From NCBI RefSeq assembly GCF_020405205.1, contig NZ_CP084469.1, forward strand, positions 1,302,001 to 1,366,000: a stretch of 64,000 nt of DNA, given 5' to 3'. Made by a program: the position numbers and the translations under genes. Numbering within the stretch: position 1 is the stretch's first letter; every line of letters starts with the position of its first letter. The stretch comes from Natrinema salinisoli (GTDB taxonomy: Archaea; Halobacteriota; Halobacteria; Halobacteriales; Natrialbaceae). A model generated the notes under the pieces. The model was not told the origin of the DNA and did no database searches. It saw nothing but the letters and a program-made list of their open reading frames with translations. Positions 7,021 through 28,748 of the stretch are shown in pieces.

Positions 7021-9114
7021 ATGATAGTTCTCGGGGTGCTTGCCCTATCTATGGGGGCAAGTGATTGGGCAGGGACGATGGTGAAGAAGATGCAGCGGGA
7101 GTACGGAGTGGAACAAGACCGGGCCCTGCAGATAACGAACCGCGTTCGGAAACTGGTTGCCAGTCCTGATATCAAGGCGCTGGAAGAAGCGGGATTGATC
7201 GAGGGGGAGTTCACCTCGGACGTAATTCAAGATCTGATCGCGCTGCTGAACCAACAAGACGAGGGGTCAATCGAGGGGCGCTGGAATGCCCTCGCGAAGG
7301 AGCGTGGAGTCTATGATGTCGTCGGTGCTGACGCGCTCCTCTATGATCCGGCAAAAGCCGATCTTGATCCGGACAAAGAACTAGTTTCTGACGACGGGGA
7401 ATCCATCACGATACAAGAAGCGATGATTACCGCCTGGCGGGAAGAGATCCCTATCGAAGCAATCCCGCGAGGCATTCGATTAGGAAACACCGAGTTCCGG
7501 GATAGAAATAGCGGCCAGGTGACACTCTCGCAGCACGACGATGGATTCGACCAGGACGGACTGAGTGACCAACTCGACTGGGACTTGCGAAGTAGCCGGC
7601 TTGAAGTCGATGCCAATCTGCTTGCTCTGGAGGACGTCGATTTCCCCATGAAAGCACCGCGTCAGGATTGTGTGCTCGCTATTGCGGCAGCACGACGGTG
7701 CATCCTCGAACGTGGCGGTGCGTCTCGTGACGAAATCCTGGAGGCAAGGGAACCCGAGAAAAACCATCCGCTTGGGATTAACGGTGTTCAGGCCAGAACA
7801 AAGGGTTTCGAATACGAATTCCGCCATATATCGTGGGAAGACGTCGTTGCTCCCGGTTTACATTCACTTTCAGATATCACGGAGCCGCCCCACGAATCCG
7901 GGAAGTGGTTCTCCAACGAAGCGACGACGGGAGGCTTTGAATCCGAAACCACAGTCGAAAACATCCTCGACGAAGGGTACCTCTTCGAAATCGCGTATCG
8001 GGACGATACCGAAGAACAGCGGGTGGTCGGCTACCACGATGAAATTACACGGCCATCGGAAAAACCCCTCAATGGGCCGCCGGTGTTTCGTTTTCAACCG
8101 ATTGTAGGAGAAAGCCCGATCACGATTCGTCTCCCAGCTCTCCGTGAACTTCACCCGATTTCACTCGAACAGCTACCCGACGCGATCTGGGAACCTGCAA
8201 TTTCGGAATTAGTGTCGATTGCCGATGAGAACCCAGAGCAAATCCCGCTCGGAGATGTTGAGGCAGTTCTCGAAGCTGTACAGAATGACCAAGTTGAGGC
8301 CGTCCCAGCACTGACATTCGTCGCCATGGTCTTCGGGGAACGAAAAGATGTCCGCGAAGCGGTCGGCGATGAACTGGAGACCATGCTCCTCGCTCGATTA
8401 GATCTCCTTACCGATAAGGAGCAATCAGAGGAGATCGCGAAGTGCTTCGGAATTGTAGCTGAGGTAGCTCCTAAACGGGTGCTGGACGCGGTGCCAGCGA
8501 TGGCATCGGCACTCGATTCAGCGACCTTGGAAACTCGCCAGTGGTTGCTGTATGCGTTCTCGAACGTCGCAGACGCATATCCCGAGGAACTCCTCCCGGC
8601 AGTCGAGATCCTGACCGAGTGTATCGAGGAGTCCGACGAAAATCTACGTACGAACGCACTCTCGACGATCGGAACAATTGCACACGCCTACCCCGACGCG
8701 GCTAGCGATATCGCCGCCGAACTCGGTGAATCGCTCACCAGCGACGATGCGTTGGTTCGTGCAAACGCCGCTGGCCTCCTCGGTGACATCGCACAGTCGA
8801 ATCCCGAATCCGTCATCCAACTTGCTCCGGAGCTGGCAGAGTCTCTTACTGCTGAAGACGAAGAAACGAGAGTCCACGCCTCGATTGCGCTACTTCGTGC
8901 CGGGGAAGCTAATCCCGAAGCAGTTCGTGACGAACATGAGCAATTGGTCGAAGCTCTCAGCGATTCACGTTCGACCGTGCGGGCGAATGTGTGCACCTTG
9001 ATTGGGAACGCCGATGTACCAGTTCCAGATGACCAGTTGCGGCTACTCAAAGACGATCCTGATAAACGGGTTCGGGAGCAGGCAGCGTGGGCGCTTGGTC
9101 GTCGTCGGAGTTGA
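7021..9114 (+). CDS. HEAT-repeat protein with an unidentified 450-residue N-terminal region
   Basis: This acidic protein of up to 697 aa has a C-terminal part, from about residue 465, built of HEAT-type helical repeats of about 38 residues. Recurring blocks are ENLRTNALSTIGTIAHAYPD, ALVRANAAGLLGDIAQSNPE and TRVHASIALLRAGEANPE. The N-terminal 450 residues match no family I recognise. A helical segment APRQDCVLAIAAARRCILE with GGASRDEI after it resembles a winged-helix or scaffold module. Starts at 7021, 7051 or 7078 (MVKKMQREYG) are all possible; the last gives the most natural beginning. Its third-position GC is visibly lower than in the sulfur genes upstream, which hints at transfer. It converges on a DNA methyltransferase gene 112 bases further on. 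Confidence 0.75.
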   Translation: MIVLGVLALSMGASDWAGTMVKKMQREYGVEQDRALQITNRVRKLVASPDIKALEEAGLIEGEFTSDVIQDLIALLNQQDEGSIEGRWNALAKERGVYDVVGADALLYDPAKADLDPDKELVSDDGESITIQEAMITAWREEIPIEAIPRGIRLGNTEFRDRNSGQVTLSQHDDGFDQDGLSDQLDWDLRSSRLEVDANLLALEDVDFPMKAPRQDCVLAIAAARRCILERGGASRDEILEAREPEKNHPLGINGVQARTKGFEYEFRHISWEDVVAPGLHSLSDITEPPHESGKWFSNEATTGGFESETTVENILDEGYLFEIAYRDDTEEQRVVGYHDEITRPSEKPLNGPPVFRFQPIVGESPITIRLPALRELHPISLEQLPDAIWEPAISELVSIADENPEQIPLGDVEAVLEAVQNDQVEAVPALTFVAMVFGERKDVREAVGDELETMLLARLDLLTDKEQSEEIAKCFGIVAEVAPKRVLDAVPAMASALDSATLETRQWLLYAFSNVADAYPEELLPAVEILTECIEESDENLRTNALSTIGTIAHAYPDAASDIAAELGESLTSDDALVRANAAGLLGDIAQSNPESVIQLAPELAESLTAEDEETRVHASIALLRAGEANPEAVRDEHEQLVEALSDSRSTVRANVCTLIGNADVPVPDDQLRLLKDDPDKRVREQAAWALGRRRS

Positions 9115-9226: not shown

Positions 9227-11875
9227 CTATTGGTCCAGAGACTCGTCGAGTGTGGTATCGACGCCGATCATTCGCAGATACGTCTCGTCGCCCGTGGCCG
9301 TCGCCAGGCCCTCACAGACGTCGGTGAGGTCGTCGTCGCCCCAGCGTTCGAGATACTCGGACGTCGCCTTCCCCTCCTCAAAGCGATAGCGCAGGAAGTG
9401 GGCCTTGTCTAGCGGCGTCGCGTCACCCTCCTGAATTTTGTCCTGAACGTAGGCCTGTCGGCCTTCGTCACGCCAGTCCAGCAGCGAGAACGCGCCACCA
9501 TCCATCTCGACGAGTTGCATGTCCTTGAATTGGTCTTCGGAGGCGTCGGAGTGGTGCAGATGTTTGTTCAGGTCGTCGTAGCCGGGGTTGTACTCCTCCA
9601 GCAGGTCGAGGTAGATCGCCTGCTCGCCGCGGGTGTTGTCCTGGATGATGCCGTAGATATTCTGGACGACCTCCTTGGCCGTCATGATATCCTGCCCACG
9701 ACGGACTTCTCCGTGGTGTTTCGAGTACTCTTGGAAGCACTTCCCCATCTCGATAACCCCGATGTCGCCGCCTTTGAGTTCACGGTTCTCTTCGAGGGTT
9801 TCTCTGGTATCTTTGGCGGTGCGGACGATCCGGCGGCGCAGCGCGTTCCAGGAGATGGGCGTTCGCTCCTCGGTCGGACGGGCGACGATGACGATATCGA
9901 AGGAGATAGCTTCGCCGCCGATAAATTTGTTCAGGTCCGAGTTGATTGGATATGTGGCGGTGATCTCGAAGCCGGTTTCGCAGAGGGATTCGAGGAGTTC
10001 ACCCCACGACTCCTCGTCGCTGTGGTGGTATGTGAACGCCAGGGATCCGTCCTCCTTCAGCGCCTCGTTGATGACCTCCAGCGCCTGCCCCATCTCGTGT
10101 TCGAAGTCCTCGGCGGTCTTGTCCAGATAGGGGTTCGTGACGATCGAATCCGCGCGCGGGGTCTTCTCCTTGTCGAAGCCGGGATGTACGTTTTTGAGGA
10201 GGATCTTCTGCCAGACGTAAAAGTAGTCCGAGACTTCCGAGTAGATGATGTTGTCGTAGTACGGAGGATCCGTGAAGACCATGTCGTACTCGTCTACTGC
10301 CTCGATTTTTCGCATGTCATCCAGATAGACCGCCGATTTTTGGCCGATAGGTTGGGCAAATCCGTCCGTTTTCTTCTTGTTACCAGATACGAGATAGCGC
10401 TCTGTCGGAGCACTCGAATATTCTACTCCTTTCACAGTCATCTCCCACATTGACGTGAATGAGCCAGTCCCGTGTTCCGTTCCCCAGATGTTATTCTCAA
10501 CAGGGCGCTGCGGAGGATCGAACGAATTCGAATTGAATATATTTGCGATAAGGTTCTTTCCCGGATTGTAGGAGGTCAGCATAGTATTATAGTTCAGAGT
10601 TTCAGTGAACGTGAGTAGGAGGTACTCCCGGATATTCGGATCAGAAACCTGATCGATCCTCTGTAGCAACTTTGCCAGGCATAATAGCTGTCGTTCGTTG
10701 AACATATCCGTCCATTCTTCGTACCCGTGGTCGAACACCGGGTTCCGTTCGGAGGTCATGTGTCCCGACGGAATCTCTTCACCGGGTACGTACTCATGTA
10801 AATCTGTCCGGGTGTTCCACTCGTTTTTTGCTGCCTCGAATAGTTGCTTGTCAACAGCTTCCGCCCCTTTATACCCTTTATATGCGCTCTGTGCTAGTCC
10901 TTCTTGGTCACATTCTTCACAGTAGTACTCTACCGCATAAAGACGCAGCCCGTACCCATCCTCTTCGGCGATCCCGTCAGTAATCGACTCTTTTTGCCCG
11001 CACTCGGGGCAGTTGTAGTAGCCACCGCGTGTCACGTGTCCGTCTTTGGGAACCCACTCGTGAGAACACTCGTTGCAATTACTCTTGCTCTGCCAGTCGT
11101 CGACGAGGGTAACCTCTCCACAGTCCGGACATAACACGTTGTATTTATCGTCGTTCTCGTATCGGCCCTTCGCCACTCGGTAGTCGTTAAACAGCGGAAC
11201 TGTATGTCCGCAGGAGACGCAATCGAGCTCCTTTACCCAGAAATTGTACATCACGTCTGCTTCGTGGTCGCCGTTGGAACAGGGGGTGCGGTAGTGCTGC
11301 GTGATCTCGTCGGCGACGTCTGCTTTCACCTGCTCGAATGCCTCTTGGAGCTTTTCGGGGTCGGTCTGGCCAGCCTCCAGCTCCTTTTTCGTGACGAACC
11401 ACGCAACCGGATTCAGGTCGTAGCCAACCGTCTCCGCGCCGAAGCGCGATGCCTCGACGAGTGAGGTCCCGCCGCCCGTAAACGGATCTAGCACCTTCTT
11501 GTCCTCGATGCGAACGTCCTTGGGATAGAAGTCCCAAAGTGACTCTGGATCCTCCATATCCACCTCCGAGACGGCCCGCAGGAGGTCCGACTCGTCGAGA
11601 CCATTTTCCCCGAGGGTCTGGTTATCGCCGGGCTCGTACACCGAAACCTCCGACTCGTCGGTATCGTCGTGGAGCAGCGAGTACAGCGAGATCGCCCGGA
11701 AGAGACAGCCCGGCCGCCGTGCCCACCACTTGTGCATCGTGTATACGGGACGGTAGTGCTGCTTTGCCCGACTCTCCTTTTCTGCGATCTCGTTCACGTG
11801 CTCTATCGGAAACCCTCGCTCGATGGGAAGTTTTGTCCGGTCGCCAGACTGGTCGCTCCGTGAATTCCGAGACAT
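9227..11875 (-). CDS. DUF1156-type DNA methyltransferase with five CxxC zinc-ribbon pairs
   Basis: This 882-aa protein begins with the DUF1156 signature: IERGFPIEHVNEIAEKES followed by the HKWWARRPG segment near residue 48. The SAM-binding motif DPFTGGGTS lies at residues 130-138 and the catalytic motif DPPYYDN at 536-542, as in amino-methylating DNA methylases. Between them, residues 219-322 hold five C-x2-C pairs (219/222, 249/252, 267/270, 289/292, 319/322), predicted zinc ribbons. DUF1156 methylases usually sit in multi-gene restriction or defence loci beside a DUF499 ATPase. No such partner is visible here, so it is either an orphan modification enzyme or works with the HEAT proteins nearby. 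It ends 112 bases from the convergent HEAT gene. Confidence 0.85.
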   Translation of the reverse strand: MSRNSRSDQSGDRTKLPIERGFPIEHVNEIAEKESRAKQHYRPVYTMHKWWARRPGCLFRAISLYSLLHDDTDESEVSVYEPGDNQTLGENGLDESDLLRAVSEVDMEDPESLWDFYPKDVRIEDKKVLDPFTGGGTSLVEASRFGAETVGYDLNPVAWFVTKKELEAGQTDPEKLQEAFEQVKADVADEITQHYRTPCSNGDHEADVMYNFWVKELDCVSCGHTVPLFNDYRVAKGRYENDDKYNVLCPDCGEVTLVDDWQSKSNCNECSHEWVPKDGHVTRGGYYNCPECGQKESITDGIAEEDGYGLRLYAVEYYCEECDQEGLAQSAYKGYKGAEAVDKQLFEAAKNEWNTRTDLHEYVPGEEIPSGHMTSERNPVFDHGYEEWTDMFNERQLLCLAKLLQRIDQVSDPNIREYLLLTFTETLNYNTMLTSYNPGKNLIANIFNSNSFDPPQRPVENNIWGTEHGTGSFTSMWEMTVKGVEYSSAPTERYLVSGNKKKTDGFAQPIGQKSAVYLDDMRKIEAVDEYDMVFTDPPYYDNIIYSEVSDYFYVWQKILLKNVHPGFDKEKTPRADSIVTNPYLDKTAEDFEHEMGQALEVINEALKEDGSLAFTYHHSDEESWGELLESLCETGFEITATYPINSDLNKFIGGEAISFDIVIVARPTEERTPISWNALRRRIVRTAKDTRETLEENRELKGGDIGVIEMGKCFQEYSKHHGEVRRGQDIMTAKEVVQNIYGIIQDNTRGEQAIYLDLLEEYNPGYDDLNKHLHHSDASEDQFKDMQLVEMDGGAFSLLDWRDEGRQAYVQDKIQEGDATPLDKAHFLRYRFEEGKATSEYLERWGDDDLTDVCEGLATATGDETYLRMIGVDTTLDESLDQ

Positions 11876-12260: not shown

Positions 12261-12605
12261 ATGAGTGACGAACCCGTATCGGACTCGACGGATACCTACT
12301 ACGTTCTCACGAGCGGCGACCCTGGTCCAGATATCCCACACGGGACTGATTGGCCGAAGGAACTCAGAATTTCCTTCGACGCCCGAGAGATACGGTTGTG
12401 GCGAGGGAAGGGGCACGGACTCGGTGGCGCGTCCTACGGGTTCGACGACTTCGATGTCTCGGAGTGGGAGGGGTTTCTCCGCGACTGTGACGCCGAGTGG
12501 CTCGTCGAAGCGCTGTCTACACACGGTTCGCTCGCGGACCTTCCAGAGGCGGCATTCCTTGAGGCGGCGACCGAACGTGACACACTCGTCACCGAGGAAC
12601 ACTGA
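12261..12605 (+). CDS. Hypothetical acidic protein, 114 aa
   Basis: I do not recognise this protein. It begins MSDEPVSDSTDTYYVLTSGD and is soluble and acidic. A tryptophan-containing middle (TDWPKELRISFDAREIRLWRG) suggests a beta-rich core, and the second half is helical (EAFLEAATERDTLV). The ATG after GGACAACGG was chosen; the frame runs further upstream only through the hairpin region. It abuts the stop of a convergent small gene at the palindrome TGATCA, which contains both stop codons, so the two share one 3' boundary. Confidence 0.6.
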   Translation: MSDEPVSDSTDTYYVLTSGDPGPDIPHGTDWPKELRISFDAREIRLWRGKGHGLGGASYGFDDFDVSEWEGFLRDCDAEWLVEALSTHGSLADLPEAAFLEAATERDTLVTEEH

Positions 12606-12875
12606 TCAGGCATTCGAATCCGAGTCGTCGGAGTCACGACCGGGCCAGACCGGCGGTCGTACTCGCCGCCCGTCGTAGGTCGACGCATCTGTGCGGAACG
12701 TCTCGACGAGAGCCGCCGCTGACCTGTCTCCGCGCTGGATCGCAGCCACTTCGTCGTCGGTCAACGCGACGGACACGTCACGGACGACTGGCCCGCCCAG
12801 CAGAAAGGTGAGGATCCACTCGCCATCGTCGTCGAGCAACACGTAGGAGTACGGCTCCGTGTCGAGTACGTTCAT
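12606..12875 (-). CDS. Hypothetical protein, 89 aa
   Basis: This unrecognised small acidic protein begins MNVLDTEPYSYVLLDDDGEW, then has a hydrophobic strand (ILTFLLGG), an ALTDDEVAAIQRGD helix and a proline/aspartate-rich tail. The pattern of short strands then a helix recalls small haloarchaeal domain proteins of no known role. The internal ATG was preferred to one 24 bases upstream because it starts the compact domain. It is convergent with, and touches, the gene to its left. Confidence 0.55.
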   Translation of the reverse strand: MNVLDTEPYSYVLLDDDGEWILTFLLGGPVVRDVSVALTDDEVAAIQRGDRSAAALVETFRTDASTYDGRRVRPPVWPGRDSDDSDSNA

Positions 12876-13185: not shown

Positions 13186-16100
13186 ATGACAGTTCATATT
13201 CGGGAAATCAGACCAGACGAACTGGCAGACGCCGTCGAGTCGGGTGGGGTGACCCTCGTTCTCGGTGCACCCGGTATCGGAACGCCACGGCACCTGCAAT
13301 CGCTGGGTCAGTCCGTCGAACAGTTGCCCGAGATCACCGCCGTCGACGATCAGGAACTCGTGATCGTCGAGGACTTCGTATCCGCGGTGTTCGACCTCGA
13401 CGACAGAACGCTGGCAGCCTATACGTACGAGTACGGCGATAAATCGCTGTTTACCAGATCGGGAGGTGCAGTGATCGTCACCCGTCCACGGAGTTTCGAC
13501 TGGCTCTGTCGGAGTGACCACGGGGTCTCCGAGAGATTCATCGAGACGGTCGACACCATTTTGTTGGTCCGAACGCCGCCGACTGGTGCCACAGCCGCAA
13601 TCGACAGGGTTCGACAGCGTCTCAATAAACGGAGTTCAGGAGGACTACAAGACGACGAGCGAAGGGCTGTGCTGGAGTGGGCCAGGTACCCGCCATACTA
13701 TTTCGACACTCCGGAGCTTCAAGCGAGCCTGGGATGGTACGACGCGACAGTCACGCCGGCAGCGTTTCTCTCCCTCTCAAAAAATGATAGCTCGGAAGTG
13801 CTGCTGCCCGGCGACGTCAGGCGAGCGTTCGGAGACCGTGACGTCTCGGTCGGGCCGTTCAGCGAGACATTTGCGGACGTCATCTCGCGATTGGTCCCGA
13901 GCGGTGGCCTCCCGAGTCGAACCCCTAACGAACGATCGCCAGCGGTCCTCGCCGCGGTCGCGCTCGTCGCCGTCGGAGTAGCAGACGACGCAGACTGGCC
14001 CGAGTCCCTCGTTCGGTATCGGACACCCCCCACAACTGCGGAGGTACTGGAAATCGCCCTGGATCTCCCGCCCGGAACGATCGATCACCTCCGCGTGTTC
14101 GCCGCCGAACCGGCGCGAGCACTGATCCGCGACCGGCTCGCAGACGACGCCGACGAGGAATCAGTCCTCGACGCGGCACGTGACGTGATAGGTGAGGCGA
14201 TGGACGCACTCCAGTCGGTGGCCCCGGCGCTCGAAACGATGTCGAACGGACCCAAGGAGTACGGCTCGTCGCCACTCGTCGGATCCTGGCACTGGGACGG
14301 CCCGCAAGCGTTGCACGATGCCGCAGTCGAGCGTGACCTTCCGGATCCGATTCGGGAGCTCGAGGGCACCGACGACGAGACGAATCCGGACTGGAGATCG
14401 CTCGTCGACGGCGACGAACTCCTCGAGGCGCTCGACGGGGGACTGGTCGTCGTCTCCGGTCCCAGAGCGAGCGGGAAGCGACAGCTGGCCGCGTCCCTCG
14501 CCTCGGAACTCGCAGACTGGGGAACGACCGTCACACTTCCCGATCTCACGCGTCCCGACCACATCCGGACGGGGATCGAGGCGACGCGGAACGCGGTCGT
14601 CGTCGCGACGTACGGTGCCGAACCTGCGGCCATCAACGGCGACGACGGCGTTCGAGCGCTCCCAGAGTGGATCGACGACGGGAGTTGTGCGGGTGCGGTG
14701 CTCATCTGTGACGACACCAACCGCGAGCGGCTCGAGGACGTCGCCGAGCGGGCGGGCTGTGAGGAATTGACGGCCTGGACCGACCGCGTCGAATTTTCGC
14801 TGGCCGATCCGACCGTCGATATCGACCGAAACCCGGCGACCGTCGCTCGCGACCTGCTCGATGCGATCGGCTGGAACGAGGTCCAGTCGCCGTCTCGTCG
14901 GACCGTCGACGTCGAGCCGGTCACGGATCAGAGCACGCTGGCAGCGATCGCGGGTGTTCCGGATCACGCCCTGGACGGCGAGTTCGTCGGAACCGTCGTC
15001 GCCGAAACCGTCGACGTCATTTCGACGACGCACGGGCCGGCCGCGGCCGAGCGGTGGCTCTCGTTCATCGACGACCTCGTTGCCGACGTCGGGCGAAATC
15101 GAACCGCCGACTCGGACGAGTCCCTCCTGTACCGGGGCGACGTATACGAGACCGCGATCGCAGCCGTCGCACGAGCGAACCCGAGGACTGACGAGTGGGT
15201 CCACGCGGTCGCGCGCGGCGTTCTCGAAGTCACGAACGAAACCGCCGCTCCGTTCGCCGGTCGAGAATCCGTCGGTGGCGATCTGGAACCGTTTGCCACC
15301 GCCTTCGCGGGCGCGCTGGCGAGGCTCGCACAGCCGCCGGACGGGTCGACCGTGAGCCACGGCGCGATCGGGTGTGTCGACGAAGCCCTCCACGCGATGG
15401 TCATCGACGACGGCTGGGGATTCCCGCTCTACTACGTCTACGGGGGCGCAGTCGGTCGAATCGCACGCCGCGCCGACGATCCGAGGGCGGCCAACGGCGG
15501 CATCTCCACCATCGTCTCCCGCGTCCGCCAGTACGCGCTGGCACCGCACGAGTACCACACGGCGGCCGTCCTCGGGAAGAGTTTCGCGTCGATGCTCGGG
15601 GCCGTCGCGAGCGTCGACGGGTCGCCCGAGGAGCGGGCGGCCTGGATCGAGGATATCGAGTCGCGGGCCAGGGACGCAGTTCAGGACGTCACCGGAGCGG
15701 ACAATCGGCGGTTACTGCTCTCGGAGCTCTACATCGCGGGGCTCGGTCTGTGGGTGTTCGAGCACGGTTGTCCGGACGAAGCGTTCAGTTCCTTCCTCGA
15801 GGCCGCTGGCCGGAGCGTTTGCCAAACCGCGACATCGCCGTACCTCGGCGACGAATCCGAGGCGTACGCCCTCGACGTGTACGGCCAGGCCGTTCGGATC
15901 GTCGTCCAGTCAGGCGAGCTGGACCGAGCAGAACGGTTCTTCGCGGAGTGTCACCGGCTCGTCGACGCTATCGCCGCCTGGGACGGGTTCGAGAACGAGC
16001 GAGACGCCCGAGCGGCACTTCACGCGGAGGCATTCGCCAACTTCGGCCAGATCGAACTCGAGTACCCGACCGCAGCCAGTAGCCGTCCCTACGGCCAGGA

Positions 16101-17526
16101 CACGATCGCGTTCGCGGACTCACTCGGCTTCGAGGACTGGATGGAACTGTACGACCCGTCCGTCACCAGAGGGCACACAGCCGACGCTGCCACCGACGAA
16201 ACGACGGCGCTTTCCGACGAGGCGGGGGAGCAGGCGGACGAGGCGACGCAGTATCTCACCGACGTCTACCGTGGGGCACTGTCTACGCACGTCCGTGGCT
16301 TCGATCCGGAGTCCGAGCACTGGTACGATTCGGACGACGGCGCGACACCTCGCGGGGAACGTACCTGGTACGCTGGGCTGACGGCAGTGATCGAATCGCG
16401 AGCGACGTCGAACGAAGTGGTGGATGACCCGGTGGGATTCCTCGCGGACGTCTACGGCGGTGCAGCCGCCACGTGGGCTGCGGATGGTGAGTCGAGTCGG
16501 ACCCAGGAGTGGGTCACGGTGCTCGTGGAGTCGTTGCGGACCAGTCGCGAGTCCATCGACGGGCCGCGGAATCCGGCGTGGTTCGACGCGTTCGCGTCGA
16601 CTGATGCCGAGATTCTCGCGGCGGTGTTGATGCGGACGGACGTCGGTGAACGGACGCACGAACGCCTGCTCGAAGCGGTCCTGTCCGAGATCACGATGAC
16701 GGCGAAAGCGCCGGATAATCCACCACATCCTGTCGTGTACGTGGCCTCGGTCTTCGGCGGGGCACTCGCTCTCGCCGCCGACGCTCCACCCGAGGAGGTC
16801 CGGTTCGGGGTGACCGAGGTGCTGGCCGTCCTCGACGACGGCTTCTCCCTCGAGTGGATCGGCCTCGAGCGAGCAGCGGTCTTCGAGCGGATCTATGCCG
16901 ACGCGCTCGTGAGGGTCGGTCGCACGCATTCCGACGTCACGGAGACGACAGCGTGGTTCGATCTCGTGAGTACCGAGATCGAAGCGACCGCGACGAGAGA
17001 AGCGCCGGAGCAGCCGGCCGAGTTCGTCGCCGACGTGTACGTTCGGGCCATCTTCGAAGCAGCTCAGGACGAGGCCGACGAGTGGCGCAGACGCCTCGAT
17101 GCGGAACTCCGTGAATTCACGAGGGGACCGTGCGTGAACGAGCCGGCGGCGTTCCTGGAAGAGACGTACGCCGACGTGGTCGTGGAGGGAGCGAAGAGCC
17201 ACGGCCCCCGGACCCGGATCGAAGCGTGTATCGATGCCGTGAGCGAGTCGATCGAGGCCGCAGACGACGCGGACCTGCTCCCGGACGATGACGCCCTGGA
17301 ACGAACGGTTTCGCAGGCCGCCGACACGCTCTCGTCGGCCACCGTCAGGAATCCCGGCGATTTCGTGATCCGCATCGACCACGGCCTCCGAAAAACGGGC
17401 CACGAGTCCCTCGCAAACGACCTGTTCGACAATGGCGGTGACGGCAAACCCGTTTCCGATGGCGAGTCGACCTCGAATACTGACCGCGGGCTCGGCAGTA
17501 ACTCGCCGGAATCGGAGGATCGGTGA
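13186..17526 (+). CDS. Giant protein with two P-loop-like segments and a long VY-repeat helical region
   Basis: This 1446-aa protein belongs to no family I can name. Residues 22-34 (LVLGAPGIGTP) form a P-loop-like turn without the usual lysine, with a Walker-B-like ELVIVED at 57-63. Residues 425-432 (GPRASGKR) form a second, more canonical Walker A with arginine in the Ser/Thr place, followed by a Walker-B-like AVLICDD at 504-510. From about residue 650 to 1340 at least eleven imperfect helical repeats occur, each with a core like DVY-x2-A-x4-A (for example DVYETAIAAVA, VYGGAVGRIA, DVYGQAVRIVV, DVYRGALSTHV, DVYGGAAATWA, DVYVRAIFEAA). The order of NTPase core then helical superstructure resembles STAND proteins. 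A HEAT gene follows after 113 bases, probably in the same unit. Confidence 0.75.
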   Translation: MTVHIREIRPDELADAVESGGVTLVLGAPGIGTPRHLQSLGQSVEQLPEITAVDDQELVIVEDFVSAVFDLDDRTLAAYTYEYGDKSLFTRSGGAVIVTRPRSFDWLCRSDHGVSERFIETVDTILLVRTPPTGATAAIDRVRQRLNKRSSGGLQDDERRAVLEWARYPPYYFDTPELQASLGWYDATVTPAAFLSLSKNDSSEVLLPGDVRRAFGDRDVSVGPFSETFADVISRLVPSGGLPSRTPNERSPAVLAAVALVAVGVADDADWPESLVRYRTPPTTAEVLEIALDLPPGTIDHLRVFAAEPARALIRDRLADDADEESVLDAARDVIGEAMDALQSVAPALETMSNGPKEYGSSPLVGSWHWDGPQALHDAAVERDLPDPIRELEGTDDETNPDWRSLVDGDELLEALDGGLVVVSGPRASGKRQLAASLASELADWGTTVTLPDLTRPDHIRTGIEATRNAVVVATYGAEPAAINGDDGVRALPEWIDDGSCAGAVLICDDTNRERLEDVAERAGCEELTAWTDRVEFSLADPTVDIDRNPATVARDLLDAIGWNEVQSPSRRTVDVEPVTDQSTLAAIAGVPDHALDGEFVGTVVAETVDVISTTHGPAAAERWLSFIDDLVADVGRNRTADSDESLLYRGDVYETAIAAVARANPRTDEWVHAVARGVLEVTNETAAPFAGRESVGGDLEPFATAFAGALARLAQPPDGSTVSHGAIGCVDEALHAMVIDDGWGFPLYYVYGGAVGRIARRADDPRAANGGISTIVSRVRQYALAPHEYHTAAVLGKSFASMLGAVASVDGSPEERAAWIEDIESRARDAVQDVTGADNRRLLLSELYIAGLGLWVFEHGCPDEAFSSFLEAAGRSVCQTATSPYLGDESEAYALDVYGQAVRIVVQSGELDRAERFFAECHRLVDAIAAWDGFENERDARAALHAEAFANFGQIELEYPTAASSRPYGQDTIAFADSLGFEDWMELYDPSVTRGHTADAATDETTALSDEAGEQADEATQYLTDVYRGALSTHVRGFDPESEHWYDSDDGATPRGERTWYAGLTAVIESRATSNEVVDDPVGFLADVYGGAAATWAADGESSRTQEWVTVLVESLRTSRESIDGPRNPAWFDAFASTDAEILAAVLMRTDVGERTHERLLEAVLSEITMTAKAPDNPPHPVVYVASVFGGALALAADAPPEEVRFGVTEVLAVLDDGFSLEWIGLERAAVFERIYADALVRVGRTHSDVTETTAWFDLVSTEIEATATREAPEQPAEFVADVYVRAIFEAAQDEADEWRRRLDAELREFTRGPCVNEPAAFLEETYADVVVEGAKSHGPRTRIEACIDAVSESIEAADDADLLPDDDALERTVSQAADTLSSATVRNPGDFVIRIDHGLRKTGHESLANDLFDNGGDGKPVSDGESTSNTDRGLGSNSPESEDR

Positions 17527-17639
17527 ACGAATGCAGATGAGAAACGCATGCAGCGTGGTGTATCGCCGACACGCGTCTTCGATGGCTGCCTGAATCGAGC
17601 GATACGTAACCGAATACGGGATCGAATTCACGACACATC

Positions 17640-18779
17640 ATGACCGATCACACGAACGCACCCGACGATCCAGCACAACGAGTCGACTACCTTCGAGAAA
17701 CCGTCGATCCCGCCACGGCAACCGACGCCGACATCGACGCGTGGTGTGAGTTGCTCACCGACTACAATGCGCGCACGGACGCCGACGAGGCACTGGGCGA
17801 AATCGCCAAAGAAAGTCCGGACGGCGTACGGCGAGTCGCCGAGGGGCTTCACCCCTACTTCGTTCACGAAACCAAACGAGTGTGGGAGATCGCCGCCGAC
17901 ATCCTCACGTGGCTCTCACTGGTCGATCCTGACGCGCTCGATATCACTGTCGACTTTCTCAGAGAACACCTGGACGCCGACGACGAGTACCGGCGGGAAG
18001 CCGCCTGGTCCGTCCTCGGCAAACTCGCCGATGTAACGCCCGAACTGGTTCGCCCGCACGTGGACGAGATCATCGAGTACCTCGACCACGACGACGCCGG
18101 GCTACAGAGCGAGGCCATCGGTATGCTGGGGAGGCTCTCGGATACGTACCCGGAAGCGATCGCGTCAGCCGGCGACGACCTGCTCGCGATCACCAGGGAC
18201 GAGAGTGTGGATGCGAGCGCGCTCCCTGGACCGCTCACGCCGATCGCGTTGGTCCGGCCCGATATCGTCCGTCCGGTCGTCGAGAACTTGCGGGACACGC
18301 TCGCTGCCGAGGCGTTCCAGGTTCGGATCAGGGCTGCAAGCTCGCTCGCCACGATCCCGGTCGCATATCCCGACGAACGCTCGCTCGTGATCGACGACTT
18401 GCTTTTGCTTGCCGAGGAAGACTCCGGAGAGCATCATACCGATCTCGTGCGCGGCGCAGCGCTCAATTCACTCAGAAATCTCGCGATCGACGATCCCGAC
18501 GCAGTCGTTCCGGAACTGCCCCGTGTCAGGGATCATCTCGACGACGAGTCCCGACTCGTTCGCGAAGCCGCCGTCGACATCCTCGGCTCCGTCGCCACCG
18601 AGCGCCCTACTGAAGTCCGATCGAACGTCGAGGATCTACTGGCGTTGCTCGCAGACGAAGACGAGCACGTCCAACTCTCGGCCGTGCGCGCACTTGGCAA
18701 GCTCGCAGCTGCGGATGCCACGGTCGCCCCACGTGTCGTCGAGGCGGTACACGAATGGTTCGATCGCGCCGAGAAATGA
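17640..18779 (+). CDS. HEAT-repeat protein, upstream part of a gene interrupted by TGA
   Basis: This 379-aa acidic protein is composed of HEAT/PBS-lyase-like repeats of 35-40 residues (for example RREAAWSVLGKLADVTPELV, VREAAVDILGSVATERP, QLSAVRALGKLAAADA). Such rods scaffold other proteins. The TGA at its end is followed in the same frame, after 10 sense codons, by the ATG of the next HEAT gene. Those 10 codons read as the start of another HEAT unit, so the two genes are probably one 650-residue gene broken by a nonsense change (a TGG to TGA change would restore it). It lies 113 bases after the giant NTPase-like gene on the same strand. Confidence 0.75.
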   Translation: MTDHTNAPDDPAQRVDYLRETVDPATATDADIDAWCELLTDYNARTDADEALGEIAKESPDGVRRVAEGLHPYFVHETKRVWEIAADILTWLSLVDPDALDITVDFLREHLDADDEYRREAAWSVLGKLADVTPELVRPHVDEIIEYLDHDDAGLQSEAIGMLGRLSDTYPEAIASAGDDLLAITRDESVDASALPGPLTPIALVRPDIVRPVVENLRDTLAAEAFQVRIRAASSLATIPVAYPDERSLVIDDLLLLAEEDSGEHHTDLVRGAALNSLRNLAIDDPDAVVPELPRVRDHLDDESRLVREAAVDILGSVATERPTEVRSNVEDLLALLADEDEHVQLSAVRALGKLAAADATVAPRVVEAVHEWFDRAEK

Positions 18780-18809
18780 AACCGGCTTCTCGACGGTTTT
18801 GAGTTCGGT

Positions 18810-19598
18810 ATGCGGGGGTCGATCATCGAGGCGTACGGGCGAATCGGTACGAGCCAGCCGGACGCCCTCGAGCCCGTCGTGGACGACATTCGGGACTCCC
18901 TCGCCGAGGCCGGTCTCGCTTCGAACGCCGCCGAGGCGCTCGGTGAGATCGGTGCTGCCCGTCCCGACATCGTGGAGCCCGCCGTCGCGGACCTTCACGA
19001 GTTGCTCGCCGACGGCGACTACCTGAATCGGGAATCGGCCGCCGTCGCGCTCGGAAAGATCGGGGCCGCCGATCTCGACGTGGCGTCACTCGTCGTCGAC
19101 GATCTGCGGACGCTTACCGCCGACGACCGACAGCACGGGCGAGCGGCAGCCGCCGAAGCGCTGGGAACGATCGCAACAGCCGATTCGAACGTGGCGGCGC
19201 AGGTCGGGGACGATATCCGGCCGCTCGTGAACGACGACGATCGCGACGTCCGATCGGCGGCGCTCGAAGCGCTCGGGAAGACCGGCGTCGAGGATCCGGA
19301 GACGGCGTCGCTCGTCCTCGACGATCTCCAGGCCGGCCTCCGCGATGTCGATCCGGAGGTACGTTCGTCGGCAGCCAACGCGCTCGGAGCGGTCGGCGCT
19401 GCCCACCGTGAGTTCGCTCCCCTTGCTACCGACGCGCTTTGTTCGCGTCTCGAGCGCGACGACGAATATCTGTACGTACGAGCGTCGATCGCCGAGGGGT
19501 TGCAGTCCATCAAGGCGTCCCACCCCGACGTAGTCCCGCTTCCCAGTTCGGAACTCCGGGGCCACATCGATGCCGCCGCCGACTTGCTGCGTGAGTGA
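18810..19598 (+). CDS. HEAT-repeat protein, downstream part of the same interrupted gene
   Basis: This 262-aa product has at least six HEAT-type repeats with the regular pattern R-x3-A-x2-LG-x-IG (for example NRESAAVALGKIGAADLD, GRAAAAEALGTIATADSN, VRSAALEALGKTGVEDPE, VRSSAANALGAVGAAH). The first repeat begins before the ATG, in the codons after the upstream TGA (LLDGFEFG then MRGSIIEAYGRIG), which is the main sign that this ATG is not the original start. If translated alone it would need internal initiation. The repeats are closer to each other than those upstream, suggesting recent duplication. Confidence 0.7.
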   Translation: MRGSIIEAYGRIGTSQPDALEPVVDDIRDSLAEAGLASNAAEALGEIGAARPDIVEPAVADLHELLADGDYLNRESAAVALGKIGAADLDVASLVVDDLRTLTADDRQHGRAAAAEALGTIATADSNVAAQVGDDIRPLVNDDDRDVRSAALEALGKTGVEDPETASLVLDDLQAGLRDVDPEVRSSAANALGAVGAAHREFAPLATDALCSRLERDDEYLYVRASIAEGLQSIKASHPDVVPLPSSELRGHIDAAADLLRE

Positions 19599-20083: not shown

Positions 20084-21145
20084 ATGCGAGCAGCCGTACT
20101 CGAGGAACATGGTGAACCGCTTGCGGTCAAAGACGTCGACTATCCGGAGCCGAAGCCGGACCAGGTCATCGTCGAAACCGAGGCGTGTGGGATCTGCCGA
20201 AGCGACTGGCACGCCTGGCAGGGCGACTGGAGCTGGATCGGTGCCGGCGTCCCCGAGGGACAGGTTCTCGGCCACGAGCCCGCCGGCGTCGTGTCGGCGG
20301 TCGGCAGCGACGTCGAGACGCTCGAGGAAGGAGACCGCGTAGCGGTGCCGTTCCACCTCGGTGACGGAAGCTGTTCTCACTGTCGCGAAGGCCGCGCAAA
20401 CAACTGCGAGACGGTGCTGCCTCTCGGGCTATCGGAGTACGCACCGGGCGCGTTCGCGGAGGCGTTCCCCGTTCGCGAGGCCGATTTCAACTGCGTCAAA
20501 CTCCCCGACGAGGTCGACTTCGCGGAAATGGCCGGCCTCGGCTGCCGGTTCATGACGGCCTATCACGCGCTGGCCGACCGGGCCAACCTCCGACCCGGCG
20601 ACTGGGTTGCCGTTCACGGCTGTGGCGGCGTCGGCCTCTCGGCGATCCATATCGCGCAGGCACTGGGCGCGCACCCGATCGCGATCGACGTGCTCGACAG
20701 CAAACTCGAGCGAGCCGAGGAACTCGGCGCGGTCGAGACGATCAACAGCACCGAGGTCGACAGCGCGCCGCAGGAAGTGCAGTCGATCACCGGCGACGGT
20801 GCCGACGTCTCGATCGACGCGCTGGGCATCGCGGAAACCTGCCAGAACTCGGTCAACAGCCTCGGAACCCGCGGGAGCCACGTCCAGGTCGGTCTCACGA
20901 CCGGCGAGGAACAGGGCCAGATCGAACTCCCCGTCGACGTCATGACGATGCAGGAGATCGACTTCCACGGCTCCTTCGGGATGCCGCTGGTCCGCTACGA
21001 GGAACTGTTCAACCTGATCGCACAGGGCACCCTCGAGCCGAGCAAGATCATCGGCGAGACGCTCTCGCTCGAGGAGGCACCGGAGACGCTGGCCTCGATG
21101 GACGACTACGAGACGGTCGGCATTCCGGTCATCACGGAGTTCTAA
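20084..21145 (+). CDS. Zinc-dependent medium-chain alcohol dehydrogenase family protein
   Basis: This 353-aa NAD(P)-dependent dehydrogenase has a catalytic zinc site formed by Cys38 (CGICRSD) and the GHE at 63-65. The structural zinc loop at 94-108 reads D-x2-C-x2-C-x7-C, so the first of the four usual cysteines is an aspartate, as in some archaeal enzymes where one ligand is acidic. The Rossmann motif GCGGVGLS lies near residue 182, followed by an acidic strand end (AIDVLDSKLERA) that suggests NAD rather than NADP. The substrate cannot be read. It stands alone with its own promoter. Confidence 0.88.
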   Translation: MRAAVLEEHGEPLAVKDVDYPEPKPDQVIVETEACGICRSDWHAWQGDWSWIGAGVPEGQVLGHEPAGVVSAVGSDVETLEEGDRVAVPFHLGDGSCSHCREGRANNCETVLPLGLSEYAPGAFAEAFPVREADFNCVKLPDEVDFAEMAGLGCRFMTAYHALADRANLRPGDWVAVHGCGGVGLSAIHIAQALGAHPIAIDVLDSKLERAEELGAVETINSTEVDSAPQEVQSITGDGADVSIDALGIAETCQNSVNSLGTRGSHVQVGLTTGEEQGQIELPVDVMTMQEIDFHGSFGMPLVRYEELFNLIAQGTLEPSKIIGETLSLEEAPETLASMDDYETVGIPVITEF

Positions 21146-21692
21146 GCAGTGACGGTCGGACCGATCGACGATCGGTTCGGCGACGGGAGTCACCGGCCGC
21201 TATACGAACTGGGTTACGAACCCCGGGCGGGGCGGGAACCGCCCCGGGCGTGAGAGACATGAGCGTACTCGAAGCGGGGGCGAGTCCACGTCGAGCGATC
21301 CGGGCATGAACGCACGCAATCGGCTGGTCAGCGCGTCGGATGGGCCGAGCGCGTACCCGGCGGGGTTTTCTCCCCGCACGTCGGACGATGCGTGTGTCGG
21401 CCATTGTTATGCGGGCGCTTGGACACCGGTAGCGTCCGCGAACCGCCCGCAGGTGGCGTATACTCCGCTCGTAGCCCGATGTTACGAAGCGATTGCTGGC
21501 ACTTTGGAGCCGATAATCGGTGTCTATATTCGCGACCGTACTAGCGGGATTCCAGCCGTGACGGACGGTCCCGTCTTCTCGATCCGGAACCAGAATAGAA
21601 AGCCGCGAACTGAAGCGATTCGGGTTCTTGGCGGCGCGGTGCTTGCCTGCGACGCCTCCAGAAGGATGGCGCTGGACGTCGTTCGAAGGCGT
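21146..21692. other. 547-base gap with two inverted repeats
   Basis: No gene is supported. Just after the alcohol dehydrogenase stop lies ACCGATCG-A-CGATCGGT (21160-21176). A GC-rich inverted repeat, CCCCGGGCGGGG to CCGCCCCGGG, lies around 21220-21248. Either may help end transcription, though no T-run follows. The frame of the next gene is open through much of the gap, but the upstream codons do not resemble its family. Confidence 0.4.
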
Positions 21693-22730
21693 ATGCCAGA
21701 TGGCGCTCCGCCACGCCCGATTCGGATCGGTATCGTCGGCCTGGGATACATCGGAACCACTGTCGGCGGTCAGTTCCACCGCCACTCGGACGCGACCGTC
21801 GGGGCGATATGCGATCTCGACGCGGATCGGCTCGAGTCTATCGGGGACGAATTCGACGTCCCCGACGACCGGCGCTACGCCGAGTATCCGTCGATGCTCG
21901 AGGACGGGGGTATCGACGCCGTCCTCGTCGGAACGCCCCATACCCTGCACTACGAGCAGGTCGTCGCCGCCCTCGAGCGAGGCTGCCACGTCTACTGTGA
22001 CAAGCCGTTGACGACGGACCTCGATCGGGCTCGCGACCTCACGGCGCGAGCCGAACGGAGCGATCTGACCGTCATGGTCGGCTACCAGCGACACTTGCAG
22101 ACGGCCTTTCGGACGGCTCGCGAGCGGTTTACCGACCACGATCCGAGGTGGGTAACCGCCTCGATCACGCAAGACTGGATCGACGACTCGCGGGGGACCT
22201 GGCGACTCGACCCGGAGCTGTCGGGCGGGGGATTCCTGTACGATACCGGGAGTCACGTCCTCGACGGCGTGCTCTGGACGACCGGCCTCGAGCCGGTGTC
22301 CGTCGCTGCGAGCATGGACTTCCACGACGACGAGAACCGCGTCGATAGCCGCGCCCACCTCGACGTGGCGTTCGCGAACGGCGCGACCGGAACGTTCTCT
22401 TTCCACGGCGACGGCCCGTCGGTCCGCGAGCACCTCCACCTCTGGGACGACGACGGCGCGGTCTACCTCGAGGGAACGCAGTGGGGACCGCGGGACGTCC
22501 GCGAGATCCATGCCGATGCCGGAGAGTACGTTCCCTACGTCGATCCCCGCGGCGAGCAGTCCCGCGCCGATGCCTTCCTCGAGAGCGTCGAGGGGGGAAC
22601 CGAGCCACCGGCGACGGCTCGAGACGCACTCCGAGTGACGGCACTGACCGAGGCGGCGTACGAAGCGGCGCTGTCGGGCGAGCGGGTCGCTATTGACGGC
22701 CTCAACGCCGACTTCGCGGAACGGGAGTGA
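21693..22730 (+). CDS. Gfo/Idh/MocA family oxidoreductase
   Basis: This NAD(P)-dependent sugar or inositol dehydrogenase of about 345 aa has a Rossmann motif GIVGLGYIG near the N-terminus, with a DLDADR stretch after the second strand. The family hallmark CDKPLTTDL (E/DKP with the catalytic lysine) lies near residue 104. Residues 180-200 (GGGFLYDTGSHVLD) carry the G-x2-D-x3-H catalytic motif of the C-terminal domain. Starts at 21666 or 21693 are possible; the second puts the Rossmann strand 11 residues in, as is usual. The substrate is unknown. No neighbour in the same direction tells its pathway. Confidence 0.87.
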   Translation: MPDGAPPRPIRIGIVGLGYIGTTVGGQFHRHSDATVGAICDLDADRLESIGDEFDVPDDRRYAEYPSMLEDGGIDAVLVGTPHTLHYEQVVAALERGCHVYCDKPLTTDLDRARDLTARAERSDLTVMVGYQRHLQTAFRTARERFTDHDPRWVTASITQDWIDDSRGTWRLDPELSGGGFLYDTGSHVLDGVLWTTGLEPVSVAASMDFHDDENRVDSRAHLDVAFANGATGTFSFHGDGPSVREHLHLWDDDGAVYLEGTQWGPRDVREIHADAGEYVPYVDPRGEQSRADAFLESVEGGTEPPATARDALRVTALTEAAYEAALSGERVAIDGLNADFAERE

Positions 22731-23396: not shown

Positions 23397-23720
23397 TCAT
23401 TCCTCCGGTTCGTCTCGCTCTTCGACACCGTCGTGAGTACTGCCGACGCCGAGTTCGGTCAGTTCGTCGAACTCCTCGTTCCGCTCGCGGTCGTCGTTCT
23501 GACGCCGGCTGATCCCCGCGAGTCGCCGATTGGTGTCCCATTCTTCGAAGAGGCCGTACTCGTTCATCGTCTCCATGCCCGCGATCGCCGCCGTGAGTTT
23601 GATTCCCACCAGCGGGATGTCTGCGACCGAGACGATCACGTCCGCCCGGAGGATCGCGCCGTCCCTGAGCAGCACGTCGAGCACGTCGACGAACGACTCG
23701 TCGTCCTTTCTCGGTCTCAT
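23397..23720 (-). CDS. gvpM: Gas vesicle protein GvpM
   Basis: This 107-aa member of the GvpA/J family has a VDVLDVLLRDGAILRADVIV block and an IPLVGIKLTAAIAGMETM block that match the GvpA core (first helix, beta turn, second helix). A hydrophilic tail of 45 residues follows. GvpM is a minor, hydrophobic component needed at the start of vesicle assembly. It is the last gene of the leftward unit, its ATG overlapping the gvpL stop by 4 bases. It was told apart from GvpJ by this position. Confidence 0.88.
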   Translation of the reverse strand: MRPRKDDESFVDVLDVLLRDGAILRADVIVSVADIPLVGIKLTAAIAGMETMNEYGLFEEWDTNRRLAGISRRQNDDRERNEEFDELTELGVGSTHDGVEERDEPEE

Positions 23721-24667
23721 GGGTGCGGATTCGCATCGTTCGCGGCGGCTGCGTTTCCGTCGCTCTCACCGCCCAGTTCCGGCGCGAACGTGTACGGTGG
23801 CCACGGGCCGGTGAACCTGACCTCGAGTCCCTCGTTCGCGGCCACGTCGTCGAGTATCGACCCGATCGCTCCCTCGTCGTCCTCGTGAGCCAGCAGGGTG
23901 AGCCGGGAGAGGGTCTCGCCGGCGTCTGAGTCGGACCCGTCACTTCCCGACCCGCTTCCGGCCACGTCGTCTGAGAATGTTGCGCTCGGTGATCGTTCCA
24001 GGGCGTGGACTTCCCGCGCCTCGGTGGCCAACCGCTCCTCGAGAGACGCGGTCAGCGACTCCCGTCGCGCGGCCCGGAGTTCCGCCAGTCGCTGGTCGAA
24101 CTTCTTTTCGAGCAGGAACGCGGTCCCGTCCCCGGAGTCACCGATCTGCTCGTCGAGCTCGCGCAGGCGCTCGTCGCGTTCGATCAGCGCCGCGTCGCTG
24201 ATCGGATCGACTTCGACGATCTCGACGCGGTACTCCCAGTGGCCCGCGAGTCCGGAGAGGGCGCGCTCGAGGGTGTCCGACTCCTCGCGGAGCCACTCCC
24301 TGACCCGGTCGTCGTCTCCGCGGAGGATCGTATCGAACTGGAACGGGATCGGCGTGCCGAAGGACTGTCCCGCCTCGTCGACGACCGTCTGGTGGCGGAC
24401 GAGCCAGCGCCTGATCTGTGCGAGGTCCGCCGAGTCGTAGATCCCGTCACAGGCGTGGACGACTGCACCGATACCGTCCTCGACGACGACCGAAACCGCT
24501 TCGCCGTCGACGCCGGTCGTCTCGAGTGTCGCGTCCTCGTCGGCGCGGACGATACAGTAGAGGTAGCGCCCCTCGTCGATCGGCGGTGCGTCCGCCGGTT
24601 CAGCGGTCGCTTGCTCCTCGATTTCCTCGAGACGTTCGGTGGGAGTATCGGAGTCGCCGTCGCTCAT
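23717..24667 (-). CDS. gvpL: Gas vesicle protein GvpL
   Basis: This 316-aa member of the GvpF/GvpL family starts with an acidic extension of about 30 residues, then YLYCIVRADED, the first strand of the N-terminal domain. The GTPIPFQFDTIL segment and the final RFTGPWPPYTFAP block near residue 290 are the family's signatures. GvpL is an accessory protein that contacts several other Gvp proteins during nucleation. A serine/glycine/aspartate-rich linker near residue 240 is an insertion. Its ATG overlaps the gvpK stop. Confidence 0.9.
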   Translation of the reverse strand: MSDGDSDTPTERLEEIEEQATAEPADAPPIDEGRYLYCIVRADEDATLETTGVDGEAVSVVVEDGIGAVVHACDGIYDSADLAQIRRWLVRHQTVVDEAGQSFGTPIPFQFDTILRGDDDRVREWLREESDTLERALSGLAGHWEYRVEIVEVDPISDAALIERDERLRELDEQIGDSGDGTAFLLEKKFDQRLAELRAARRESLTASLEERLATEAREVHALERSPSATFSDDVAGSGSGSDGSDSDAGETLSRLTLLAHEDDEGAIGSILDDVAANEGLEVRFTGPWPPYTFAPELGGESDGNAAAANDANPHP

Positions 24668-25008
24668 TCCTCGTCACCCCCGAACACGGAATACCCGGGT
24701 TTGCGGGCGGCCGTCGGCTCGCCGTGAAGCCCTTCGATCGCGTCGTTGACCAGCCCGTCGAGGTCGCCTCGAAGGTCGTCGACGCCGTTTTCGATCCCCT
24801 CGTCCGTTTTGAGCCGTTCGATCTCGGCCTCGATCGTCGCGAGTTGCTCCCCGAGGCGCTCGACCTCTTCGTCAGTGAGATTTCCCGACTCCATGCGCCG
24901 GACGGCCTCCCGCTCGAGCGCTTCGATCAGGATCTCGACGACGGTAACGATCAGCGTCATCAGCCCGTCCCGTGCGTCCTCGCCGTCGCCGACGTCGATC
25001 GCGGTCAC
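24664..25008 (-). CDS. gvpK: Gas vesicle protein GvpK
   Basis: This 114-aa helical protein has the GvpK core DGLMTLIVTVVEILIEALEREAVRRM followed by LTDEEVERLGEQLATIEAEI, which form the conserved helix pair. The C-terminal PGYSVFGG tail is free. GvpK is required for vesicle assembly but its biochemical role is unknown. It overlaps gvpJ and gvpL by 4 bases on each side, so expression must be coupled. Confidence 0.9.
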   Translation of the reverse strand: MTAIDVGDGEDARDGLMTLIVTVVEILIEALEREAVRRMESGNLTDEEVERLGEQLATIEAEIERLKTDEGIENGVDDLRGDLDGLVNDAIEGLHGEPTAARKPGYSVFGGDEE

Positions 25009-25571: not shown

Positions 25572-25652
25572 CGCGATCACCTCCGACGAGGGACGGCCAC
25601 AGATCGGTCGGTCGGGCCGCACAGCCGGTCGGTCGCTGCAGTGGTGGGTCAG

Positions 25653-27274: not shown

Positions 27275-27275
27275 G

Positions 27276-27530
27276 TTATCGTTTCACCTCCACGCGCCCG
27301 CTCGAGAGCTGTTCGTGTACCTCCCGTGCGGTCTCGAGCTCCGCTTCGAGTTCTTCTTTCCGGCGCCGATACTCCTCCTCGGAGCGCTCGCCGAGTTCGT
27401 ACAGCAGCTGGTTCTCCTTGCGCTCGTCCTCGAGGGCCTCCACGTCGTAGAGTTCGTCGAGCGCGATGGTGTGGAGGGCGTCGATGATGCCGACGAACGG
27501 CCGGAACAGGAGGTCGTCGATGATGAACAT
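27276..27530 (-). CDS. gvpG: Gas vesicle protein GvpG
   Basis: This 84-aa protein shows the GvpG pattern: a hydrophobic N-terminus FIIDDLLFRPFVGIIDALH followed by a long charged coiled coil (ERSEEEYRRRKEELEAELE). GvpG is a minor accessory protein. The gene is 4 bases after gvpF. Confidence 0.9.
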   Translation of the reverse strand: MFIIDDLLFRPFVGIIDALHTIALDELYDVEALEDERKENQLLYELGERSEEEYRRRKEELEAELETAREVHEQLSSGRVEVKR

Positions 27531-27534
27531 GGTC

Positions 27535-28742: not shown

Positions 28743-28748
28743 CCTCAC

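What the first reader, a model, noticed from the sequence alone, without database searches (positions are those of the whole stretch)
13186..19598. Giant NTPase-like repeat protein coupled to HEAT genes: a candidate new system
A 1446-aa protein carries two P-loop-like segments (the first lacking the lysine, the second GPRASGKR with Arg in the Ser/Thr place) and at least eleven VY-core helical repeats. HEAT-repeat genes follow at once on the same strand. The layout of NTPase core, helical superstructure and scaffold partner is like STAND-type defence or signalling proteins, yet no known family was recognised. Its neighbourhood also holds a DNA methyltransferase.
Basis: partly seen in the sequence, partly recalled or inferred. 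Interest (0 to 1): 0.6.

Follow-up and report, generated by a model that had tools for sequence, protein, structure and literature searches.

The report
Haloarchaeal degenerate STAND-like giant repeat protein
The 1446-residue gene belongs to a patchily spread, so far unnamed haloarchaeal family built like the STAND switch proteins behind plant, fungal and bacterial immune receptors; in this branch both ATP-binding loops have decayed while the protein stays under selection, so it is a candidate inactive immune-type sensor, not yet shown to defend anything.

Summary
The ORF, its two P-loop-like segments and its helical repeats are real. It belongs to an unnamed haloarchaeal family (25 of 391 Halobacteria genomes at E<1e-10). 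Distant relatives show a STAND layout: a P-loop domain with the signature DDF...TRPRSLDWL, a hydrophobic segment, a second P-loop domain with canonical GPHGTGKT, a GNPEIAKIA motif, a winged-helix-like stretch, then helical repeats. In the window's clade (14 members) loop 1 has lost its lysine, loop 2 has Arg for Ser/Thr, and the GxP/winged-helix stretch is gone, yet dN/dS is about 0.3: a probable pseudo-NTPase under selection. The best structural match of domain 2 is the STAND core of Avs5 (Z 12.6). The two 'HEAT genes' are one 651-aa gene broken by an in-frame TGA. Intact orthologues sit directly downstream of the giant in six other genomes, but the partner is deleted or decaying in the window's nearest relatives. 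A 114-aa gene follows the family too (11 of 12 genomes). The methyltransferase is not conserved at these loci, and no defence-island enrichment was found. Most likely a degenerate STAND-type sensor or scaffold for biological conflict; the conflict role is inferred.

The parts
13186..17526 (+). Giant STAND-like repeat protein, 1446 aa
   Evidence: dN/dS 0.30-0.34 against relatives at 75-82% identity
13186..13860 (+). Domain 1 (residues 1-225), P-loop-like domain with family signature (E/D)DF...TRPRSFDWL
   Evidence: clade A/B versus distant relatives hhalign Prob 99.8
13264..13290 (+). Loop 1, GAPGIGTPR (Lys lost), residues 27-35
   Evidence: Alignment with GAPSVGKS/GAPYIGKT/GAPAMGKS relatives
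13354..13377 (+). Walker-B-like ELVIVEDF, residues 57-64
13861..14385 (+). Linker with hydrophobic helix (residues 251-269 SPAVLAAVALVAVGVADDA) and conserved LPPGT motif; some relatives have a stronger hydrophobic segment here
14386..14985 (+). Domain 2 (residues 401-600), AAA+/STAND-type P-loop domain; GxP/winged-helix region lost relative to distant homologues
   Evidence: (Avs5 Z 12.6, model 398-592)
14458..14481 (+). Loop 2, GPRASGKR, residues 425-432
   Evidence: Arg in 20 of the 21 clade A/B tree rows, GK[ST] in all distant relatives
14986..17430 (+). Helical solenoid with VY-core repeats (residues 601-1415)
   Evidence: pLDDT 83, about 34 helices; repeat scan above shuffles
17640..19598 (+). 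Single HEAT-repeat partner gene (about 652 codons) interrupted by an in-frame stop
   Evidence: tblastn with L044 651-aa orthologue, one frame, 69% identity; Pfam HEAT
18777..18779 (+). In-frame TGA that splits the HEAT gene
12261..12605 (+). Small conserved associated gene c3, 114 aa
   Evidence: 12 of 391 genomes, 11 of them with the giant; dN/dS 0.27
12606..12875 (-). Small conserved associated gene c4, 89 aa
   Evidence: Recurs in 11 family loci; dN/dS 0.32

Best explanation
The giant is a degenerate member of a haloarchaeal family of STAND-like proteins: two P-loop NTPase-type domains in tandem followed by a long helical solenoid. Shown: homology to relatives with intact motifs, decay of both Walker A loops and loss of the GxP/winged-helix stretch in this clade, purifying selection, predicted solenoid fold, patchy presence at different chromosomal and plasmid sites, and an operon-like HEAT partner in part of the clade. 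Inferred: the solenoid recognises a ligand, perhaps an invader's protein; the dead or nucleotide-binding-only core acts as a fixed scaffold or sensor and not as an ATP-driven switch; it hands the signal to other solenoid partners (HEAT protein, giant TPR-like protein) or to an active paralogue of clade B, which keeps an intact loop 1. In the window strain the HEAT partner is broken and probably dispensable. A role in biological conflict is the most likely function but is not shown.
For: Motif table and tree: clade A (14 rows) and clade B (7 rows) each separate from the other by one change, 100/100 support; the loop-1 Lys is lost in all of A and kept in all of B. Distant relatives carry GPHGTGKT, GNPEIAKIA and tandem VY repeats. 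A profile of distant relatives alone finds the window gene: E 7.8e-33 (domain 1) and 1.7e-14 (domain 2). Avs5 STAND core is the top VIA match, Z 12.6, rmsd 2.9, 130 residues; Foldseek top hit is the plant NLR RPP1, only E 1.4e-3. nSTAND3 above cut-off in L105 (28.3 vs 27.2); Avs5 also carries nSTAND3 (PMC12931631). Tandem repeats in relatives are 79% identical within a protein and 33% between proteins, the pattern described for fungal NLR sensor repeats (PMC4986451). Presence 25/391 genomes at E<1e-10. In the genus the flank is present in nearly all species, yet the giant sits next to it only in the window and G069 among those compared. Decayed copies in G042, G054, G064, G043, G250.
Against: No effector domain was recognised in any member. 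No defence-island enrichment: about as many strongly PADLOC-matching neighbours as in control regions. No homologue in viral contigs. The domain 1 model is poor (pLDDT mostly under 60) and its fold was not confirmed. nSTAND3 does not pass its cut-off for the window protein. Patchiness fits any accessory gene.
Confidence: 0.55

Rival explanations
1. A cellular scaffold or trafficking-type protein without a conflict role: the solenoid organises proteins in the cell, and the P-loop domains are structural leftovers.
For: The best solenoid matches are designed repeat proteins, then generic HEAT/ARM scaffolds; neighbours are mostly ordinary metabolic genes; no effector found.
Against: Only 25 of 391 genomes carry it, at different sites and on plasmids; recurrent decay; near-identical tandem repeats in relatives.
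Confidence: 0.25
2. A decaying gene in a lineage that is losing it, without present function: degenerate loops, broken HEAT partner, truncated copies elsewhere.
For: Lys loss with unconstrained substitutes (T, Q, S, G, M) at loop 1; HEAT interrupted in the window and deleted in G069; several truncated copies.
Against: Open over 1446 codons with dN/dS about 0.3 overall for eight pairs; loop 2 GKR is near-invariant in clades A and B.
Confidence: 0.1
3. The clade A protein remains a working nucleotide-dependent switch: loop 2 GKR binds nucleotide with Arg replacing the Mg-coordinating Ser/Thr.
For: Loop 2 Lys invariant and Arg conserved in 20 of 21 clade A/B rows; domain 2 fold retained.
Against: All distant relatives have GK[ST]; the GxP and winged-helix elements through which STANDs read nucleotide state are missing in clades A and B. 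In PaAvs5 mutating the Walker A Gly or Lys abolishes immunity (PMC12931631).
Confidence: 0.1

Closest known systems
Avs5 (AVAST type 5), SIR2-STAND antiphage protein
   Same: STAND-type P-loop core (best VIA match, Z 12.6), nSTAND3 in Avs5 (PMC12931631) and in relative L105, C-terminal helical repeats
   Different: No SIR2 or other effector found; an extra N-terminal P-loop domain; both Walker A loops degenerate and GxP/winged-helix lost in the window clade; haloarchaeal; no antiviral test
iSTAND proteins (Kaur et al. 2020, PMC7159879)
   Same: Catalytically inactive STAND core kept in multi-component loci
   Different: No recurrent MoxR/vWA couple noticed at these loci; partners are HEAT, giant TPR-like and small proteins; sequence relationship to iSTAND not tested
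Fungal NLRs with highly conserved repeats (HET-D/E, NWD; PMC4986451)
   Same: STAND-like core plus near-identical tandem repeats within a protein that differ between proteins (in the distant relatives)
   Different: The window protein's own repeats are diverged; different repeat type; no effector
nSTAND3 family (Pfam PF20720)
   Same: Relative L105 passes the cut-off
   Different: Window protein scores 12.0 bits against a cut-off of 27.2

Membership tests
STAND NTPases | Canonical Walker A GxxxxGK[ST] in the core | tested here: not met
   Window GAPGIGTPR and GPRASGKR; met in distant relatives (GPHGTGKT)
STAND NTPases | AAA+-class P-loop fold of the core | tested here: met
   Residues 398-592 match the Avs5 STAND core, Z 12.6, rmsd 2.9 over 130 residues; other AAA+ structures score Z 9-11, so class rather than subfamily is fixed
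STAND NTPases | GxP-containing ARC segment and winged helix after the NTPase core | tested here: not met
   Present in relatives as GNPEIAKIA...W.(L/V)(S/T)P.IY; replaced and deleted in clades A and B. The winged-helix reading in relatives is from sequence, not modelled
STAND NTPases | C-terminal superstructure-forming repeats | tested here: met
   Helical solenoid, pLDDT 83
Avs / antiphage STAND | N-terminal effector (nuclease, SIR2, protease, TM and so on) | tested here: inconclusive
   No effector family in Pfam, PADLOC or NCBIfam; domain 1 model too weak to exclude one
Avs / antiphage STAND | Antiviral activity triggered by a viral protein | not testable with these tools
   Needs experiment
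Defence-island gene | Enriched near known defence genes | tested here: inconclusive
   146 neighbours versus 133 control proteins: similar, small numbers of strong PADLOC matches
iSTAND ternary systems | Neighbouring MoxR and vWA genes | tested here: inconclusive
   Not among the 25 commonest Pfam families of neighbours; not searched one by one
HEAT-repeat proteins (partner gene) | HEAT repeats | tested here: met
   PF13646/PF13513/PF02985 above cut-off

The most novel reading that the evidence does not exclude
Clade A (both P-loops degenerate) and clade B (loop 1 intact) form a sensor-helper pair, an archaeal counterpart of plant NLR pairs, with HEAT, giant TPR-like and small proteins as further modules. 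Clade A and B copies lie within about 15 kb of each other in G054 (B copy decayed) and G260, and clade B's small partner gene persists beside clade A giants in the window and G067.
Probability: 0.15. Interest if true: 0.8.

Novelty: new variant of a known kind. Interest (0 to 1): 0.5.

Why it matters
Immune-receptor-like STAND proteins are well studied in bacteria, fungi, plants and animals but little in archaea. A haloarchaeal family that runs from canonical STAND-like proteins with near-identical repeats to a clade with both loops decayed would allow a test of whether a STAND scaffold can work without its ATP switch. A member sits on pHME505 of Haloferax mediterranei, a laboratory organism, so the question can be tested.

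Tried and rejected
Two separate HEAT genes: rejected, one gene with an in-frame stop. Methyltransferase as part of the system: rejected, not recurrent at family loci. Viral origin: no homologue in IMG/VR contigs. Known PADLOC or NCBIfam family: none; PADLOC hits of relatives are P-loop-only. Domain 1 as a duplicate of domain 2: profile comparison gives only a P-loop match, Prob 5%. Domain 1 against PDB sequences: no relative. Family outside Halobacteria: only P-loop-sized matches in the phylum sample. Short hits in G199 and G296 were not accepted as family members (the G296 neighbour protein scanned is a histidine kinase); G077's 1051-aa protein (L065) is a weak, unsettled case. The 1400-aa HEAT proteins of G076/G077 are a different HEAT-PQQ family. 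HEAT without giant: G002 has an intact orthologue near the end of an 8.8-kb contig beside other locus genes, so absence of the giant there is unsure.

Full report
What is there. The window lies in a genome that groups with Natrinema (G000:C1:1302001-1366000; named relatives). ORF 13186-17526 encodes 1446 aa. It has no Pfam match above cut-off (best AAA_16, E 0.014; nSTAND3, 12.0 bits against a cut-off of 27.2), no PADLOC match and no NCBIfam match. Plasmid-borne homologues are annotated 'hypothetical protein'.

Family. Protein searches found the gene in 16 of 125 genomes of the same family, and a profile of residues 1-625 found 33 of 391 Halobacteria genomes, of which 25 have matches better than 1e-10; the rest are P-loop-only. 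In a tree of 28 proteins clade A (window and 13 others) and clade B (7) are separated with 100/100 support, and the distant relatives L063, L099-L103 and L105 form the other side. Clade B row L051 falls nearest to clade A on that tree. Outside the class only P-loop-sized matches were seen.

Anatomy. In the distant relatives the order is: domain 1 (P-loop GAPxxGK[ST] in L099/L100, Walker-B-like LVILDDF, then TRPRSLDWL; loop 1 is degenerate in the others); a hydrophobic segment; LPPxT; domain 2 with GPHGTGKT; GNPEIAKIA; a stretch ending in W.(L/V)(S/T)P.IY that I read as a winged helix (inference); then, in most of them, tandem repeats with core FLxNVYxMAI. In clades A and B domain 2 keeps GK but has R for S/T (20 of 21 rows), GNPEIAKIA is replaced and the following stretch deleted. 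Clade B keeps GK[ST] in domain 1; clade A has T, Q, S, G or M for the Lys. Homology of both domains across this divide is supported by profile-profile comparison (Prob 99.8 and 99.3) and by a profile of distant relatives that finds the window gene (E 7.8e-33 and 1.7e-14).

Structure. Residues 600-1446 are predicted as an all-helical solenoid (pLDDT 83, pTM 0.80). Residues 1-625 are predicted poorly overall (pLDDT 58), but residues 398-592 align best with the STAND core of EfAvs5 (9jap_A, Z 12.6, rmsd 2.9, 130 residues), with another Avs5 structure third (Z 11.0); many other AAA+ proteins follow at Z 9-11. Foldseek's top hit is the plant NLR RPP1 at E 1.4e-3, with low TM-score. This fixes the AAA+/STAND class and leans to STAND; it does not prove it. 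Solenoid matches are generic.

Selection and decay. dN/dS for the giant is 0.29-0.39 over eight pairs, with no domain near 1, so the degenerate protein is maintained. Truncated or split copies occur in G042, G043, G054, G064 and G250.

HEAT partner. The two HEAT ORFs are one gene: a 651-aa orthologue from G060 aligns end to end in one frame across TGA 18777-18779. Orthologues occur in 8 of 391 genomes; in 7 of them (window included) they lie directly behind a clade A giant (hypergeometric p 1.4e-8). In G069, the closest relative, a clean deletion removes window 17614-19450, that is nearly the whole HEAT gene, while the giant stays intact. G067 keeps only a remnant, and several clade A loci have none. 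So the partnership is real but dispensable and is breaking down in this lineage.

Other partners. A 114-aa gene (12261-12605) occurs in 12 of 391 genomes, 11 of which carry the giant (p 7e-14), usually right behind a clade B giant; an 89-aa antisense neighbour (12606-12875) recurs in 11 loci. A giant TPR-like protein (1000-1400 aa or longer) flanks the giant in G054, G260, G362, G044 and on H. mediterranei pHME505. A gene of about 396 aa that looks beta-propeller-like by eye recurs in G044, G067, G260, G183 and next to the HEAT orthologue of G002; it has no Pfam match.

Context. The alcohol dehydrogenase/oxidoreductase flank (20084-22730) is present in nearly all species of the genus, but the sequence upstream of about 20000 differs in the eight genomes compared; only G069 shares the insert. 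The giant is thus an accessory insertion at variable sites, also on plasmids. Neighbour proteins gave a few strong PADLOC matches (BrxC, a UvrD-type helicase, TnpB/Cas12f-like, DUF1156 methylase), and control regions gave similar numbers (Cas4/Cas6, IetA), so no island enrichment is claimed; neighbours are mainly metabolic.

Mechanism. Shown: anatomy, decay, selection, association. Inferred: a solenoid sensor on a STAND-derived core that no longer switches by ATP hydrolysis, acting as scaffold or decoy with partner solenoid proteins or an active clade B paralogue. Inactive STANDs in conflict systems have a precedent (iSTAND, PMC7159879), and near-identical repeats within a protein, as in the distant relatives (79% within, 33% between), are a mark of fungal NLR sensors under diversifying selection (PMC4986451). 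No effector and no antiviral assay exist, so conflict function stays an inference.

Verdict. The STAND-like interpretation is supported at family level; the window protein is a degenerate derivative that fails two defining features of an active STAND. I rate it a new variant of a known kind.

Noticed in passing
23717-29783: Gas-vesicle (gvp) gene cluster judged from the protein sequences by eye: GvpF/L-like, GvpJ/A-like, GvpH-like and GvpN-like ORFs.
   Followed up: no
25663-25821: 39-bp tandem repeat, 4.1 copies at 99% match, inside ORF 25653-26711 (13-aa unit containing QRRNNETATAED); probably a recent expansion in a gas-vesicle gene.
   Followed up: no
7021-9114: A second HEAT-repeat protein (697 aa) with an N-terminal part without a Pfam match, beside the DUF1156 methyltransferase.
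   Followed up: partly
9227-11875: DUF1156 DNA methylase similar to HmaB (E 1e-36); no other Hma gene was noticed beside it.
   Followed up: partly
L107:1-16391 (G250:C1:240001-256391): Run of large same-strand genes (1039, 573, 1280, 1227 aa) about 11 kb from a truncated second copy of the giant; may be a BREX-like cluster.
   Followed up: no
L063, L102, L103, L105 (C-terminal halves of the giant relatives): Near-identical tandem VY repeats with 44-50 aa units that differ between proteins; candidates for repeat-number variation between strains.
   Followed up: partly
L110:7309-11322 and L111:9176-13384: Haloarchaeal 1340-1400 aa proteins that join HEAT repeats to a PQQ-type beta-propeller.
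   Followed up: no
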